A DNA stretch of 64,000 bases from Nitrospirota bacterium. Lineage in GTDB: Bacteria; Nitrospirota; Nitrospiria; Nitrospirales; UBA8639. Positions 23,449-30,082 of the stretch are shown piece by piece. A program made the translations under genes and the position numbers. The notes beneath the pieces are model-generated. The model did no database searches. It saw nothing but the letters and a program-made list of their open reading frames with translations, and was not told the DNA's origin. Numbering within the stretch: position 1 is the stretch's first letter; the number at the start of each line of letters is the position of its first letter. The DNA lies in contig JAOTTP010000002.1 in the NCBI GenBank assembly GCA_029864405.1, positions 31,678 to 95,677 on the forward strand. Reading direction: 5' to 3'.

Positions 23449-24366
23449 ATGCTATTAGTTTTCTTTTTGTTGTATCTTTCGGTACCCACTGCTTTTGGGT
23501 TTTTGGCAGGACTTCCAAAATTTCTCATACTGTATTTTAAAAAACCCAAAGGAGTTGTCATTGATAAGAATATGTTCCTCTGTATCCTTGCCGCAGAGGT
23601 TTTAACTTTTAGTGTAATTTTCTTTTATCCTAAGGCCCCATTGTATCAACAGCAAGCTCCGATTGTTTCTCTTATTGATTCTCTGGCGCAAAATTCCCTT
23701 TTTGCTGCTTTGCTCTGTTTGAAAATTTTCCTGGTTCATCGTAATCTTTTCGCATTTTTCCTGGTAATAATTATCTTCTGTTTACCTCTGTATGGGGTTA
23801 TGGCAGTTTTCATGCACTATCCCTTTCGAACATTTTTCAAAACAAAAATTGGATATTTTCTGTTCAGTCTGAGTGTTCCTCTTTTGTTGGGCTTTTGGAT
23901 CCTGGTCGCTCCTTTTATATGGGGAAAATGGTATCCACCCGATAATGGGCGATTTAATACAGATAGTGAGATGAATATTATGCTCTACCATGCTGCAGAG
24001 GTAGGATTACCCAGTGTGGTCAAGGGATTACTTGAAGAGGGAGCTAATGTAAATTTTGAATATTGGAAGGGATCAAAGGGGCAAACTCCCTTATATTCAT
24101 CATTTTCGTTAGGTAGATGGTCAGAAGGAAACCGTTTTGAAACTGCAAAGGTTCTTATTCAATATGGCGCCAATGTTAATGCAAAGATAGGCGGTAATTC
24201 TGGTATTAGTGGTAGTCCTTATCTCGTGGAATTAGCCCGGCGAAATGACCATGAATTAATTAATTTACTCCTTGAATCTGGAGCTGATGCTGAGGCCAAA
24301 GACCAATTTGGAAAAAGCTATTTAGATTACATTCAGGAAGGAAAATTGAATTTATTCTCCTTATAG
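23449..24366 (+). CDS. Membrane protein with C-terminal ankyrin-like repeats
   Basis: Several N-terminal TM segments; C-terminus MLYHAAEVGLPSVVKGLLEEGANVNFEYW...TAKVLIQYGANVNAK...ARRNDHELINLLLESGADAEAKDQFG. Confidence 0.75.
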   Translation: MLLVFFLLYLSVPTAFGFLAGLPKFLILYFKKPKGVVIDKNMFLCILAAEVLTFSVIFFYPKAPLYQQQAPIVSLIDSLAQNSLFAALLCLKIFLVHRNLFAFFLVIIIFCLPLYGVMAVFMHYPFRTFFKTKIGYFLFSLSVPLLLGFWILVAPFIWGKWYPPDNGRFNTDSEMNIMLYHAAEVGLPSVVKGLLEEGANVNFEYWKGSKGQTPLYSSFSLGRWSEGNRFETAKVLIQYGANVNAKIGGNSGISGSPYLVELARRNDHELINLLLESGADAEAKDQFGKSYLDYIQEGKLNLFSL

Positions 24367-24398: not shown

Positions 24399-24878
24399 AT
24401 GGCCATTGTTGTTGATTCAAGAGGCAAGTCTCAACGGTATGCCTTGACTCTATTAGTTTTGACAGTCCTCTTTACTTTCAGAGTAGTCGCACAATTGCTA
24501 CAGGTCTTTTATCCGGTTGCGGTTCTTCCGTCATTCGAGGTCTGGCAGAGCGGAGCCTTACCGTATCCGATTTTGCTGATGTTCCAAGTTGCGATTCTGT
24601 GGGTGTGTCTGCAGATTGTGTGGCGGATGTTTAAGGGGGTGGTGGTGGCCGTCCCGAAAAAATGCCGAATCCTTCTTTGTCTGGGCGGACTCTATCTGGT
24701 GGTGATGGGTATTCGCTTGATGATTGGTCTGACAGTCGCTCCTGATCATTTTTGGTTTGGGGCGGTTCTTCCTACTCTATTTCATTTTGTGCTCGCCACC
24801 TTTATGTTGGTCTATGGCTGGTATCACGTCTCGGGCGCCTACTCATCGAAATATATTCCCCATGAGGCGAAAGTGTGA
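24399..24878 (+). CDS. Multi-pass membrane protein, first gene of GH3 operon
   Basis: 160-codon ORF with about four hydrophobic segments; overlaps the next start by 4 bp (GTGA). Confidence 0.65.
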   Translation: MAIVVDSRGKSQRYALTLLVLTVLFTFRVVAQLLQVFYPVAVLPSFEVWQSGALPYPILLMFQVAILWVCLQIVWRMFKGVVVAVPKKCRILLCLGGLYLVVMGIRLMIGLTVAPDHFWFGAVLPTLFHFVLATFMLVYGWYHVSGAYSSKYIPHEAKV

Positions 24879-25756
24879 GGACGCTGGTCCGTTACGGAGT
24901 TTATCCGGTTGTTCTGGCCCTAGGAATTCTGTTGCATGTGGTCTTGCAGCAGATGGGAATGCATCTTCAACTCGCAACATATCTGCCGGTGGTGCTGGGG
25001 GCTCTCATAATTACCGTCCTGGAATGGCAAGCCCCGTGCCGTCAAACCTGGTGGGCGGACAAGCGCGAAATTGGACAGGACGCCATCTTTATGGCCCTCA
25101 TTCAAGGCGTGCTCCCGCTTGTCTTGGCCTTTGCCGTGTCTCTGACTCTGCTGGATTGGCTGCGTGTGCATGAGTGGTCGGTGGGGGTCGGGTGGCCTCA
25201 TCATTGGACCGTGGCGAGTCAGATGGTGTTGATGATGGGGGTGGCCGATGGGATGCGATATTGGCTGCATCGATGGGCGCATGAGTGGGAACCACTTTGG
25301 CGATTTCATGCCGTCCATCATTCACCCCACAAATTATATTGGCTGAACGTGGGGCGGTTTCATCCTATCGATAAGGGCTTGCAATTCCTCCTCGATACCC
25401 TGCCTTTTTTGATCATTGGTGTGGGGGAAGAAGTGCTGGCCTTGTATGTAGTGTGTTACGCCATTAACGGCTTCTTCCAACATTGCAATATCGATCTCAG
25501 GCTCGGCTGGCTCAATTACCTGATAAGCGGACCGGAACTGCATCGATGGCACCATTCTCAATGGAAAGAAGAATCGAACCATAATTATGGGAACAACTTG
25601 ATTGTTTGGGATCGGATATTTGGAACCTGGTATTTGCCTGATGAGCATCAGGTCGAGAATCTCGGACTGTTAAATCGGAGCTATCCGATGTCCTTCTGGA
25701 AACAAATGGCGACCCCGTTTGTTCCGGGGGCCGATAAACAAACTATTTCCTCATGA
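24875..25756 (+). CDS. Fatty acid hydroxylase/sterol desaturase family protein
   Basis: His boxes HRWAH, HAVHH, HRWHH between TM segments. Confidence 0.87.
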   Translation: MRTLVRYGVYPVVLALGILLHVVLQQMGMHLQLATYLPVVLGALIITVLEWQAPCRQTWWADKREIGQDAIFMALIQGVLPLVLAFAVSLTLLDWLRVHEWSVGVGWPHHWTVASQMVLMMGVADGMRYWLHRWAHEWEPLWRFHAVHHSPHKLYWLNVGRFHPIDKGLQFLLDTLPFLIIGVGEEVLALYVVCYAINGFFQHCNIDLRLGWLNYLISGPELHRWHHSQWKEESNHNYGNNLIVWDRIFGTWYLPDEHQVENLGLLNRSYPMSFWKQMATPFVPGADKQTISS

Positions 25757-27399
25757 AGCTCCCCAATCCATTGCAGAACTCGGAACTTCACGCGCAGATG
25801 GTGATGTGCGGTCGACGGTGGTGGGATCCGTTTATGGATCAGTTGCACCGGCCACAGGCAGTCCAGGATTTGGTGTTGAAAAGCATCTTGCAGGCCCAGG
25901 CGTTTACCGTCTTTGGGCAAACCCATCGATTCCCTTTACTGAAAGGTTCCCGGGAATTTCGTCGGGAAGTGCCGATTCACACCTATGAGGACCTCCGTCT
26001 GCCTATCGAGGATCAAGAAGCCCGCAAAGAAGCCATGCTGAATGGGGAGCAGCCTTTGACCTATGCCCTGACGAGCGGAACCACCGGGAAACCAAAATTG
26101 ATTCCTGTGCTTCACCAAACCCAGGAGGCCTTGCGTCACTATCAGTGGCTCAGTACCTATGCGCAGTACCAGGCCCTTCCTTCGATATTCGAGGGCAAGA
26201 TGCTGGTCATTGCAGGACCTGAAGTGGAAGGTTATTTGGACACTGGCACCAGTTATGGTTCGATGTCCGGGTTATTGACCGCTGCCCTGCCGGCAGTGCT
26301 CCAGCAGAAATTGTTTCTCCCGAAAGCTCTGCATGAGGTCAAAGATTACCAGGAAAAATATATGTATTTGGTCGCCTATGCCTTGTCGGAGCCCAATCTG
26401 TCGGTGGTGGCCACGGCGAATCCCTCGACTTTTTTGAAGTTATGGGAGATGGGTTGTCTTTATTTCCCGCAGCTAGTGGAGATGTTGGCTTCCAACAGTT
26501 CAGAGCCTCAACAAGGCCATCTCCCCCTTCCCCATATTTCCCGGCGGAGATTGAGACAATTGCAGGATTTCATTGGGCATGAAGACCAATTGACCGTGGA
26601 AGAACTGTGGCCCAATCTCAAGTCCGTCGTAACCTGGATGGGGGGCAGTTGCGGAGTTTTGATACCTAAACTTAAAGCGAGCTTGGCTCCCCAGACGGCC
26701 ATCATTGAGATGGGATATCTGTCGAGTGAATGTATGGGCAGCGTGAATGTCGATCCAACTACGAATCGATGTGTCCCTACGATACAAGAAAACTTTTATG
26801 AGTTTGTGTCTCAGTCGGATTGGGAAGCCGATCATCCGCACACTGTGACTGTTGAGCAGTTGGAAGAGGGCAAAAAATACTATGTGGTAGTCACCGCGGC
26901 CAATGGTCTCTATCGCTATTTCATGAATGATCTCATCGAGGTGACGGGACATTTTCATTGCACCCCGACGATCGCATTTATCCAAAAGGGAAAAGGGGTC
27001 ACCAACATCACCGGCGAGAAACTCTATGAATATCATGTGATAGAGGCGATGGAGGCAGTGCAGAACAGGTACCGGACAACGGTGGCCTTTTATGTCATGC
27101 TGGCCGATCCTCTGGCCCGGCAATATATCCTCTATATGGAGCATCCCCCCTTGGATACGTGTGTGGGGAGGCAATTAGAAAAGGCCCTCGCCAAGTCCAA
27201 TGTGGAGTTTCAAAACAAGCGGGACAGTGGGAGGCTGGAGCCGATCCGGGTCGTCCATCTTGAGCCGGGGACGGGTGAAGCCTATAAGACCCACTGCCTC
27301 CAACAAGGTCAACGAGATGCCCAATTCAAAGTGGTGAGATTGCAATATGCCAAAGACTGTTCATTTGATTTCATGAAGTATGGGAGGAATCCATTCTGA
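25753..27399 (+). CDS. GH3-family acyl-adenylating (acyl-acid amido synthetase-like) protein
   Basis: TYALTSGTTGKPKLIPV phosphate-binding loop; SSECMGSVNVDP...FYEFV; YYVVVTAANGLYRYFMNDLIEVTGHFHCTPTIAFIQKGKGVTNITGEKLYEYHV. Confidence 0.87.
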   Translation: MKLPNPLQNSELHAQMVMCGRRWWDPFMDQLHRPQAVQDLVLKSILQAQAFTVFGQTHRFPLLKGSREFRREVPIHTYEDLRLPIEDQEARKEAMLNGEQPLTYALTSGTTGKPKLIPVLHQTQEALRHYQWLSTYAQYQALPSIFEGKMLVIAGPEVEGYLDTGTSYGSMSGLLTAALPAVLQQKLFLPKALHEVKDYQEKYMYLVAYALSEPNLSVVATANPSTFLKLWEMGCLYFPQLVEMLASNSSEPQQGHLPLPHISRRRLRQLQDFIGHEDQLTVEELWPNLKSVVTWMGGSCGVLIPKLKASLAPQTAIIEMGYLSSECMGSVNVDPTTNRCVPTIQENFYEFVSQSDWEADHPHTVTVEQLEEGKKYYVVVTAANGLYRYFMNDLIEVTGHFHCTPTIAFIQKGKGVTNITGEKLYEYHVIEAMEAVQNRYRTTVAFYVMLADPLARQYILYMEHPPLDTCVGRQLEKALAKSNVEFQNKRDSGRLEPIRVVHLEPGTGEAYKTHCLQQGQRDAQFKVVRLQYAKDCSFDFMKYGRNPF

Positions 27400-28499
27400 T
27401 GTCTCTCATGACCTTGTCCCAAACAATGTTGGAGATTCCTTTTAAGCAGGCCTTCACGCATGCGATCGCGACTCGTGCTTGCACTGAAAGTGTGTTGGTG
27501 AAGGCCACAAATTCCCATGGACTGATAGGTTTAGGGGAGGGGTGCCCCAGGTCGTACGTAACATTAGAGACGTTGGAATCGGCCAAGGCGTTTTTTGAGA
27601 CGCATCGTCAGTCATGGGAACATTTGCGGGGGCTGGAAGATCTGCGCACCTGGATGACTGATAACCGGAAACTTGTTGATGCGAACCCGGCGGCCTGGTG
27701 TGCGGTGGAGCTGGCCTTGTTGGATGTGTGGGGAAAAGAATCAGGCCAGTCTCTCGAAGCCCTCTTGCGCCTACCTGAAGTCACGGGATCCTTTCAATAT
27801 TCCGCGGTCCTGGGGACCGACAGTCTGGCCACCTTTCAGAAACAGGCGACACAATTTTCGGCGTTGGGTTTTGTGGACTTCAAAATAAAGGTCTCCGGTT
27901 GCCTGGAAGACGATCAACATAAAATCGATCTTCTTAAAGGGCTGGGCATAGAGAATCTGCGTATCCGGCTTGATGCCAACAACCTTTGGGGCCACCCGGA
28001 AGAAGTCGTGGCCTATCTTGAGGCTCTTCACCATCCCTTTCTGGCGATTGAAGAGCCCCTTCAAGTCGGCGACTTTGAGGGATGTCGAAGGATTAACCGA
28101 CAATTGGGGCTTCCAGTCATTTTGGATGAGAGCTTTTTGCGCAAGGACCAATTCCAGAATGTGCAAGCCGATCCTCAAACTTGGATCATCAATGTCCGTA
28201 TATCCAAGATGGGGGGCGTCCAGCGATCTCTGGCCGTTGCGGAGCAAGCTAGGGAAGCGGGCATTCAAATAATAATTGGCGCGCAAGTCGGGGAGACGAG
28301 CATCCTCACACGGGCGGCGCTCACCGTCGCCAATCAATACCGCGGCAATCTTCTGGCCCAGGAAGGGGCCTTCGGAACCTATCTTCTAGAACACGACATC
28401 ACAGATACACCTCTCATGTTCGGCAAAGGAGGTAGGCTCGATTCTCAACCCCTCAGCGACCTGCCCGGTCTCGGGCTGACTCTCGCGCAATCCGCATAA
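27399..28499 (+). CDS. Enolase-superfamily protein (dipeptide epimerase / N-acylamino-acid racemase-like)
   Basis: FKIKVSG (KxK), RLDANNLW, AIEEPL, VILDESF, RISKMGG motifs; start overlaps the GH3 stop. Confidence 0.85.
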   Translation: MSLMTLSQTMLEIPFKQAFTHAIATRACTESVLVKATNSHGLIGLGEGCPRSYVTLETLESAKAFFETHRQSWEHLRGLEDLRTWMTDNRKLVDANPAAWCAVELALLDVWGKESGQSLEALLRLPEVTGSFQYSAVLGTDSLATFQKQATQFSALGFVDFKIKVSGCLEDDQHKIDLLKGLGIENLRIRLDANNLWGHPEEVVAYLEALHHPFLAIEEPLQVGDFEGCRRINRQLGLPVILDESFLRKDQFQNVQADPQTWIINVRISKMGGVQRSLAVAEQAREAGIQIIIGAQVGETSILTRAALTVANQYRGNLLAQEGAFGTYLLEHDITDTPLMFGKGGRLDSQPLSDLPGLGLTLAQSA

Positions 28500-28703
28500 G
28501 CTTTTTTATGACGTGAAATTCCAGTAACGAATTGAAGGCTTACTCATGCCTTTCTCCTATGGAATGCCTGACAAGAGCCCATGTTTCACAGCTCAAACTG
28601 ATCATGAGCGACATCTGAATTCCTTCTAATAACTTGAATGGCCATATTTGCCAAATATAGACATTTGCGGTATTTTGAAGGTAACAAGAGAGGAGGAGCA
28701 AGA

Positions 28704-28940
28704 ATGAATGTGAGTTTCACGGAAAAACAGGAACGCTACATTGCAGCGCAACTCGAGTCTGGAGACTACCAAAATGCCAGTGAAGTGGTACGCGATGCTT
28801 TGCGGCTACATGAAGTCTATCGTCATCGGGTGATTGAGGAACTTCGGGCTGAGATTGCTAGGGGGTGGGATGGCAAAGCGAGTCCCCGAAAGGTGCAGGA
28901 TATTATCCAGTCCAGGTTGCGAGCAAGAAAATCTTCCTAG
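28704..28940 (+). CDS. ParD-like type II antitoxin
   Basis: MNVSFTEKQERYIAAQLESGDYQNASEVVRDALRLHE; RBS AGGAGGAG; directly abuts the toxin gene. Confidence 0.87.
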   Translation: MNVSFTEKQERYIAAQLESGDYQNASEVVRDALRLHEVYRHRVIEELRAEIARGWDGKASPRKVQDIIQSRLRARKSS

Positions 28941-29246
28941 ATGGCCAAACCAGAGGTGTTGTATGAACTCTCTCATGAGGCCGATAGGGATCTCGAAGAT
29001 ATCTTCGATTATACGGAGCGAGAATTTGGCTTTGATCAGGCTATCGATTATCTCTCCGGCTTTGAAAGCCTTTTTGCCAAACTTGTCAACAATCCAGAGC
29101 TAGGGAAAGAGCGAGAAGAAATTCGTGAAGGACTCAGGAGTTTGCTGAAAGAGAAGCATGTCGTCTTTTACAGAAGACTAGGTAACCAAATTCGCATTGT
29201 AAGAATTCTTCATGGCAGTCGTGATCTGCGAACATTTCTTACCTAA
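28941..29246 (+). CDS. ParE/RelE-superfamily toxin
   Basis: YELSHEADRDLEDIFDYTEREFGFDQAIDYLSGFES...LGKEREEIREGLRSLLKEKHVVFYRRLGNQIRIVRILHGSRDL. Confidence 0.9.
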   Translation: MAKPEVLYELSHEADRDLEDIFDYTEREFGFDQAIDYLSGFESLFAKLVNNPELGKEREEIREGLRSLLKEKHVVFYRRLGNQIRIVRILHGSRDLRTFLT

Positions 29247-29593: not shown

Positions 29594-30082
29594 ATGAAAA
29601 AGAAGATCACGGTGTTTGTGTCCTATGCCCGCGCCAATCGGGATCTGGCGACACGGTTTTTGAAAAAGTTCAAAGAGCAGGCCGCTCCCTCTAAACAGTA
29701 TCATTACACTTTTTGGCGGGATAACGACATTCTGGTTGGCGAAAAATGGCATGAAGAAATTCAAATTGCCTTGGGAGAGTGCGACGTGGGACTGGTCCTG
29801 GTCAGCCCTGCGTTTCTCGGATCGCAATACATCCAGGATCAGGAACTTCCCAAATTTGTGAAGGGTGGAGATAAACCGGTTATCCCGGTCTTGTTGCAGC
29901 CCATTGATCTGGAGCGCCATGATCTGAAAGGCTTGCAACAGACACAAATCTTTCGGCTGGATCGTCCGCGCTTCGCCTCGCTCAAGGCCTATGGCGAATG
30001 TTCGGGGTCCCAGCGCGATCAATTTGCTCTGGAATTGTTTCGGCAGGTCGAAGCCCGATTGGATAAAGTGCTGAAAAAATAA
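29594..30082 (+). CDS. Stand-alone TIR domain protein
   Basis: ITVFVSYARANRDLATRFLKKF...FWRDNDILVGEKWHEEIQIALGECDVGLVLVSPAFLGSQYIQDQELPKF. Confidence 0.87.
   Translation: MKKKITVFVSYARANRDLATRFLKKFKEQAAPSKQYHYTFWRDNDILVGEKWHEEIQIALGECDVGLVLVSPAFLGSQYIQDQELPKFVKGGDKPVIPVLLQPIDLERHDLKGLQQTQIFRLDRPRFASLKAYGECSGSQRDQFALELFRQVEARLDKVLKK

What the first reader, a model, noticed from the sequence alone, without database searches (positions are those of the whole stretch)
24399..28499. Translationally coupled GH3 / enolase-superfamily / lipid-hydroxylase operon: candidate undescribed acyl-amino-acid or aminolipid pathway
Four genes overlap stop-to-start: GTGA at 24875-24878, ATGA at 25753-25756 and TGATG at 27397-27401. 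They encode a small membrane protein, a di-iron hydroxylase/sterol desaturase, a GH3-family adenylating enzyme with TSGTTGKPK, and an enolase-superfamily enzyme with KxK, DAN, EEP, DES and SKMGG motifs. Established knowledge: plant GH3 proteins join carboxylic acids to amino acids through acyl-adenylates, and the dipeptide epimerase/N-acylamino-acid racemase branch of the enolase superfamily acts on N-acylated amino acids. Inference: GH3 makes an N-acyl amino acid, the enolase homologue epimerises or dehydrates it, and the membrane enzyme hydroxylates the acyl chain.
Basis: partly seen in the sequence, partly recalled or inferred. Interest (0 to 1): 0.78.

Follow-up and report, generated by a model that had tools for sequence, protein, structure and literature searches.

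The report
GH3 ligase–enolase lipid operon
A compact four-gene bacterial operon pairs an enzyme that probably joins a fatty (or other carboxylic) acid to an amino acid with an enzyme that probably flips the amino acid's handedness and a membrane hydroxylase; the pair recurs in two phyla, so it may be an undescribed route to unusual amino-acid lipids.

Summary
Four genes at 24399-28499 overlap stop-to-start and encode a 4-helix membrane protein (MEM), an FA_hydroxylase (HYD), a full-length GH3 enzyme and an enolase-superfamily enzyme (ENO). The order MEM-HYD-GH3-ENO is kept in 17 Nitrospirota loci and one planctomycete, where HYD and GH3 are fused. The four genes come and go as one block: the empty site was seen. 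Planctomycetes also carry ENO-GH3 in the opposite order, flanked by alpha/beta-hydrolases. GH3 and ENO distances correlate at 0.97. No paper found describes this pair.

That a bacterial GH3 can make N-acyl amino acids was shown in 2025 (OlsH; PMC12493201), but this GH3 lies outside the OlsH-like clade. ENO is nearest to dipeptide epimerases and the N-succinyl-Arg/Lys racemase, keeps both catalytic lysines, lacks the dipeptide DxD motif and has its own signature (H21, R26, P50-R51-x-Y53). A menaquinone role is excluded: MenB and MqnE are missing.

Best reading: an N-acyl-amino-acid (aminolipid) pathway with C-alpha epimerisation and hydroxylation. The architecture is well supported; substrates and stereochemistry are inferred. 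It is a new variant of a known kind.

The parts
24399..24878 (+). MEM: 159-aa membrane protein, 4 predicted long helices, unknown family; always with HYD
   Evidence: no Pfam; 11-row alignment; invariant columns incl. R28, Q32, R106, H117, H129, H143; AlphaFold, pLDDT 82; no PDB fold match
24875..25756 (+). HYD: fatty-acid-hydroxylase superfamily (PF04116) membrane di-iron enzyme, OlsE-like
   Evidence: OlsE profile 194 bits, full length, cut-off 475; HxxxH 132/136, HxxHH 145/148/149, HxxHH 223/226/227 invariant
25753..27399 (+). GH3: GH3-family acyl-adenylate/amide ligase, all three Pfam domains; motif TSGTTGKPK with invariant S108
   Evidence: OlsH profile 94 bits, cut-off 620; plant GH3 structures, best 8e-22; tree
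27399..28499 (+). ENO: enolase superfamily, muconate-lactonizing/dipeptide-epimerase subgroup; bases K162 and K270, metal ligands D192, E218, D243
24875..24878 (+). GTGA overlap MEM/HYD
   Evidence: conserved -4 overlap in 15 of 16 cassettes
25753..25756 (+). ATGA overlap HYD/GH3
   Evidence: in planctomycete L088 the two genes are one 849-codon ORF
27397..27401 (+). TGATG overlap GH3/ENO
   Evidence: spacing -23 to +13 in relatives

Best explanation
The locus is a self-contained operon for an N-acyl-amino-acid (aminolipid or lipoamino acid) pathway. GH3 activates a free carboxylic acid, most likely a fatty acid, as acyl-AMP and joins it to an amino acid. ENO, a Mg2+-dependent two-base enzyme (K162/K270), removes and returns the alpha-proton of the N-acyl amino acid and so epimerises it, most likely L to D. 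HYD, a di-iron membrane enzyme, hydroxylates the product on head group or chain, with MEM as its constant membrane partner. Shown here: the gene content, the family assignments, the conserved catalytic residues, the linkage of GH3 with ENO in two gene orders and two phyla, and the gain or loss of the four genes as one block. Inferred: the acid and amino acid used, epimerisation as the reaction, the order of steps, and what MEM does. Rough weights: GH3 forms an amide with an amino acid 0.75; ENO does a 1,1-proton transfer on the GH3 product 0.5; the whole scheme 0.4.
For: Operon: overlaps kept in relatives. Block behaviour: in 4 genus relatives without it, SDR and TIR genes are about 155 bp apart (a fifth carries other DNA there), and in a sister genus SDR and DUF2130 are adjacent, where carriers hold these four genes. 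Linkage: of 296 Nitrospirota genomes, all 11 with a strong GH3 have the ENO, and 11 of 13 with a strong ENO have the GH3. Of the two exceptions one is a deletion remnant of the cassette and one an orphan ENO. Planctomycetota: HYD-GH3 fusion with MEM and ENO (L088), and ENO-GH3 together in nine more, most in reversed order. GH3 and ENO distances correlate, r = 0.97 (27 loci; 0 of 2000 permutations) and 0.95 in 11 scattered loci. The trees agree on the main groups. Chemistry: GH3 domains complete, with S108 aligned to the serine essential in OlsH (S115, PMC12493201). ENO is nearest to dipeptide epimerases 3jva/1jpm and to the N-succinyl-Arg/Lys racemase 2p88 in sequence and fold, with K162 and K270 matching the two bases of YkfB (PMC5808125). 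HYD matches OlsE over full length at 194 bits.
Against: No substrate is known. GH3 scores 94 bits against the OlsH equivalog cut-off of 620 and lies outside the OlsH-like clade. HYD is far below the OlsE cut-off. ENO is below every family cut-off, and one broad muconate-family model scores as well as any. Some planctomycete ENOs sit beside an alpha/beta-hydrolase with no GH3 nearby (L090, L104), so ENO is not tied to GH3 everywhere. No O-acyltransferase of the OlsI kind lies in the cassette. ENO structure confidence is low after residue 324.
Confidence: 0.4

Rival explanations
1. ENO works before GH3: it makes the carboxylic acid (by cycloisomerisation, dehydration or syn-elimination, as OSBS or muconate cycloisomerase do) that GH3 then couples to an amino acid. 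This would resemble the MenH-MenC-MenE trio, given the alpha/beta-hydrolases in planctomycetes.
For: ENO's best NCBIfam scores are to the broad muconate model (98 bits; 163 for the planctomycete form) and OSBS (88). The ABH-ENO-adenylating enzyme order recalls men genes.
Against: All these scores are far below their cut-offs. Carriers have no MenB over the cut-off and no MqnE, so true OSBS has no pathway. Sequence and fold are nearer to epimerases and racemases than to OSBS or MLE.
Confidence: 0.2
2. It is an ornithine-lipid-type pathway in which GH3 makes the lyso-lipid and HYD hydroxylates it, as OlsH and OlsE do; ENO is a side activity, for example removal of wrong diastereomers or recycling.
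For: OlsH precedent in planctomycetes (PMC12493201); OlsE-like HYD, OlsE hydroxylates the ornithine moiety (PMC3972451); HYD-GH3 fusion in L088.
Against: The GH3 is outside the OlsH-like clade (100/100 split). OlsH-like loci lack ENO (0 of 20). GH3 keeps ENO in planctomycetes even where HYD is absent, so ENO is not a side player.
Confidence: 0.2
3. The core is a stereo-inversion cycle: GH3 acylates an amino acid, ENO racemises the N-acyl form, and a hydrolase (the flanking alpha/beta-hydrolases of planctomycetes) releases it, giving free D-amino acids. The window cassette is a derived form.
For: ABH-ENO-GH3-ABH arrangement in planctomycetes and ABH-ENO-GH3 in one Nitrospirota genome, L027. ENO is nearest to N-acylamino-acid and dipeptide epimerases.
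Against: No such hydrolase in the cassette or elsewhere in the carriers searched beyond weak hits; HYD and MEM would have no part; these hydrolases look lipase-like (PF12146) rather than amidase-like.
Confidence: 0.12
4. Four neighbouring genes without a shared pathway, kept together by descent.
For: All Nitrospirota carriers in family f1 share one chromosomal site.
Against: Different flanks in family f3; two gene orders of ENO and GH3; HYD-GH3 fusion; block gain or loss; decay of the block in G169 and a broken GH3 with a stop codon in ENO in G174.
Confidence: 0.03

Closest known systems
OlsH/OlsI ornithine-lipid pathway of Singulisphaera acidiphila (PMC12493201)
   Same: A bacterial GH3-family enzyme in an operon with lipid-modifying genes; essential motif-1 serine present; planctomycete relatives of the ENO-GH3 pair also sit beside alpha/beta-hydrolases.
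   Different: GH3 is in another clade and far below the OlsH cut-off; an enolase-superfamily gene is fixed here and absent around 20 OlsH-like loci; no alpha/beta-hydrolase (OlsI-type) in the cassette.
OlsE ornithine-lipid hydroxylase
   Same: HYD is PF04116 and aligns over the full OlsE profile (3-288 of 293).
   Different: 194 bits against a cut-off of 475; always paired with MEM here; the partner lipid-forming enzyme is GH3, not OlsBA.
[quoted passage not shown] N-succinyl-Arg/Lys racemase (PDB 2p88)
   Same: Nearest solved structures by profile and by fold; KxK and second lysine, three metal ligands.
   Different: No DxDxP motif in 34 of 34 sequences; the 33 rows counted all carry H21, R26, P50-R51-x-Y53-x-T55-x-E57 and R267; H21 and R51 are absent from the five solved relatives whose alignments were printed (2p88 has D51 in place of R51).
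Plant GH3 acyl-acid amido synthetases (JAR1, GH3.12, GH3.15)
   Same: Same fold family, three GH3 Pfam domains, nucleotide motifs.
   Different: Low identity; third motif is YRYxMND/IND rather than YRYRxGD; bacterial operon context.

Membership tests
GH3 family (Pfam PF03321/PF23571/PF23572) | Score above curated cut-offs for all three domains | tested here: met
   145.7, 69.8 and 47.1 bits, each cut-off 23.6
OlsH (NF052613) | Equivalog cut-off 620 bits | tested here: not met
   94.2 bits
OlsH (NF052613) | Falls in the OlsH-like clade | tested here: not met
   20 OlsH-like planctomycete rows form one side of a 100/100 branch without it; none of those 20 reached the cut-off either
OlsH (NF052613) | Makes N-acyl-ornithine | not testable with these tools
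   needs assay
OlsH/OlsI operon | Adjacent alpha/beta-hydrolase O-acyltransferase | tested here: not met
   none in the window cassette; a planctomycete ABH query finds only weak hits in carriers of the four-gene cassette
Fatty acid hydroxylase superfamily PF04116 | Score and His-box motifs | tested here: met
   109 bits, cut-off 31; invariant HxxxH, HxxHH, HxxHH
OlsE (NF052566) | Equivalog cut-off 475 bits | tested here: not met
   194.2 bits, full length
Enolase superfamily, MLE/dipeptide-epimerase subgroup | KxK plus second Lys base, Asp/Glu/Asp metal ligands | tested here: met
   K162, K164, K270, D192, E218, D243 in 33 of 33 rows
Dipeptide epimerase | DxD motif near the eighth strand (motif recalled from the literature) | tested here: not met
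   D.D.P absent from 34 of 34 ENO sequences; present as DFDTP in 3q45
Dipeptide epimerase / DgcA (NCBIfam) | Curated cut-offs | tested here: not met
   DgcA 81.7 of 400; Ala-Glu epimerases 71.4 of 500 and 41.6 of 343
o-Succinylbenzoate synthase | Curated cut-off and a menaquinone pathway to serve | tested here: not met
   88.1 of 200.65; no MenB over the cut-off in 13 genomes
Muconate/chloromuconate cycloisomerase (TIGR02534) | Curated cut-off 335 bits | tested here: not met
   98 bits; planctomycete form 163 bits
N-acylamino-acid racemase (function) | Racemises N-acyl amino acids | not testable with these tools
   nearest solved relative by profile is the N-succinyl-Arg/Lys racemase 2p88, suggestive only

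The most novel reading that the evidence does not exclude
A GH3 ligase and a new enolase-superfamily racemase form an undescribed, two-phylum module that makes stereo-inverted (D-amino-acid) lipoamino acids: hydroxylated membrane lipids in Nitrospira-type bacteria and acyloxyacyl or other forms in planctomycetes. It would be a GH3-based lipid class separate from ornithine lipids.
Probability: 0.3. Interest if true: 0.78.

Novelty: new variant of a known kind. Interest (0 to 1): 0.6.

Why it matters
The first function of a bacterial GH3 lipid enzyme found here dates from 2025, and that paper expects homologues outside the planctomycetes to use other amino acids. Here one clade comes with a fixed partner, an orphan subfamily of the enolase superfamily whose signature was not found in the solved relatives examined. 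Each member of the pair narrows the other's function: ENO should act on what GH3 makes, or the reverse. No epimerase of lipoamino acids turned up in the literature searched, and no lipid study tied to these genes in Nitrospira was found. Four small genes make this directly testable in E. coli.

Tried and rejected
(1) Menaquinone hypothesis (ENO as OSBS): rejected, since no carrier has MenB over the cut-off or a real MqnE hit. (2) Membership in the OlsH clade: rejected by score and tree. (3) OlsBA route in carriers: PF13444 is absent from 12 of 13 genomes and only a 23-bit partial hit in one. (4) Flanking alpha/beta-hydrolase elsewhere in carriers: only weak hits. (5) Identity of MEM through fold search: model fair (pLDDT 82), but no PDB match below E = 1.5. 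(6) Plasmid-borne copies: plasmid GH3s are at most 27% identical and of other clades. (7) Promoter and terminator scan: nothing above shuffled expectation. (8) Literature on GH3 with enolase or epimerase: nothing relevant. (9) First genome-contig scan with GH3 found one close relative, a Nitrospirales MAG, and two distant planctomycetes. (10) The motif regex for GH3 motif 1 was badly written and was not used.
Full report
WHAT IS THERE. Four + strand genes, 24399-24878 (MEM), 24875-25756 (HYD), 25753-27399 (GH3) and 27399-28499 (ENO), overlap by 4, 4 and 1 bases. Pfam names HYD (FA_hydroxylase), GH3 (all three GH3 domains) and ENO (MR_MLE N and C domains); MEM matches nothing. The window lies in a 2.9-Mb, 66% complete assembly. 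A locus 76% identical in GH3, from the same family, is a Nitrospirales MAG.

CONSERVATION. Ten of the eleven relatives with a GH3 match carry MEM-HYD-GH3-ENO in this order; the eleventh, L027, has only ENO and GH3. A phylum search of 296 genomes gave 11 genomes with a strong GH3, six of them new loci, and every one has the four genes. The -4 overlap MEM/HYD is kept in 15 of 16 cassettes measured (the script stopped on the last loci). The reciprocal ENO search over the same 296 genomes found 13 strong hits, the next best being 116 bits. Eleven are the same genomes. Of the other two, G169 is a remnant with pieces of MEM, HYD and ENO and no GH3, and G299 is an orphan ENO near a contig end. G174 has a stop codon in ENO and a GH3 split between frames.

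ONE BLOCK. In family f1 the cassette sits between an SDR gene and a TIR-domain gene (SDR and DUF2130 in one genus). In relatives without it, SDR and TIR are about 155 bp apart (L171, L172, L174, L175), or SDR and DUF2130 are adjacent (L176, L177). L173 has about 1.3 kb of other DNA there. In family f3 the flanks are different. The unit gained or lost is therefore these four genes and no more.

OTHER PHYLUM. Planctomycete searches with the ENO profile gave L088, where MEM and ENO accompany one 849-aa ORF that holds both FA_hydroxylase and GH3 domains. Nine others have ENO and GH3 together. In L089, L091-L094 and L096 the order is ABH-ENO-GH3-ABH with closely packed genes, ABH being a PF12146 alpha/beta-hydrolase. 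One Nitrospirota genome, L027, has ABH-ENO-GH3 at 31-35% identity. So the stable core is ENO+GH3, seen in two orders, with either MEM+HYD or ABH as companions. The trees agree on the main groups, with planctomycete L088 sister to the Nitrospirota cassettes in both. Pairwise distances correlate at 0.97, and at 0.95 in 11 scattered loci.

WHAT THE ENZYMES ARE. Bacterial GH3 has a demonstrated precedent: OlsH of Singulisphaera acidiphila joins fatty acids to ornithine with ATP and Mg2+, and S115 of motif 1 is essential (PMC12493201). The window GH3 keeps that serine (S108) but scores 94 of 620 bits against the OlsH model. Twenty OlsH-like planctomycete proteins form a separate 100/100 group and have no ENO nearby. 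The OlsH authors expected homologues outside the planctomycetes to use other amino acids. HYD scores 194 bits over the full OlsE profile (cut-off 475); OlsE hydroxylates the ornithine head group (PMC3972451). ENO's nearest solved relatives by profile are the N-succinyl-Arg/Lys racemase 2p88 (167 bits) and dipeptide epimerase 3jva (166), and by fold the dipeptide epimerases 1jpm and 3jva. K162 and K270 correspond to the two bases of YkfB, K162 and K268 (PMC5808125). The dipeptide-specific DxD (motif recalled, seen in 3q45) is missing in all 34 sequences. H21, R26, P50, R51, Y53, T55, E57 and R267 are invariant in the 33 rows counted. H21 and R51 are absent from the five printed solved relatives (2p88, 3jva, 1jpm, 3r0k, 3q45). 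This defines a subfamily. Extra invariant basic residues could mean a second acidic group on the substrate, but that is a guess.

WHAT IT IS NOT. Carriers have no MenB over the cut-off and no MqnE beyond one 20-bit scrap, so ENO is not an OSBS serving menaquinone. OlsB-type acyltransferase is essentially absent. ENO is not the only enolase-superfamily gene of this subgroup either: several carriers and non-carriers have a second, distant one (about 80-110 bits), a better candidate for housekeeping dipeptide epimerase.

READING. Best fit: GH3 makes an N-acyl amino acid, ENO epimerises its alpha-carbon, and HYD with MEM hydroxylates the lipid. The linkage and families are shown; substrates, stereochemistry and order are inferred.

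LIMITS. The genome sets reached were Nitrospirota and Planctomycetota only; Bacteroidota, the richest phylum for GH3 (PMC12493201), could not be surveyed. ORF starts are mechanical. Several planctomycete contigs are fragments, so absence of GH3 beside some ENOs is uncertain. Carriers are related, so counts are not independent.

Noticed in passing
23449-24366 (+): An ankyrin-repeat membrane protein gene stands between the SDR gene and the cassette only in the window; no homologue in the same place in 10 relatives.
   Followed up: partly
28638-29246 (+): A ParD/ParE-type toxin-antitoxin pair lies between ENO and the TIR gene only in the window.
   Followed up: partly
29594-30082 (+): A 162-aa TIR-domain protein, 84-90% identical across the genus and followed by a DUF2130-type gene, more conserved than the cassette it borders.
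   Followed up: no
L171, L172, L174, L175 (SDR-TIR junction): Clean empty sites of the four-gene cassette; L173 carries about 1.3 kb of other DNA there.
   Followed up: yes
L088:7095-9641 (-): Natural HYD-GH3 fusion protein of 849 aa in a planctomycete.
   Followed up: partly
L089, L094 around ENO-GH3: Two alpha/beta-hydrolases, a patatin-like phospholipase and a ParA/MinD-like ATPase recur around planctomycete ENO-GH3 pairs.
   Followed up: no
L090, L104: Alpha/beta-hydrolase next to ENO with no GH3 nearby, so ENO has a second partner.
   Followed up: no
L052:7962-9548 (+): A divergent GH3 in G255 followed by what looks like a Rieske oxygenase, a GNAT-like protein and a fatty acid desaturase: perhaps another GH3 lipid or metabolite cluster (names from sequence only).
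   Followed up: no
L053:7920-9590 (+): Streptomyces plasmid GH3 inside a polyketide-synthase cluster with P450, aminotransferase and F420-dependent oxidoreductase.
   Followed up: no
G000, G024, G050, G054, G288 and others: Neither MenB over the cut-off nor MqnE was found in 13 Nitrospirota genomes; their quinone pathway is not the classical or futalosine one by these models.
   Followed up: no
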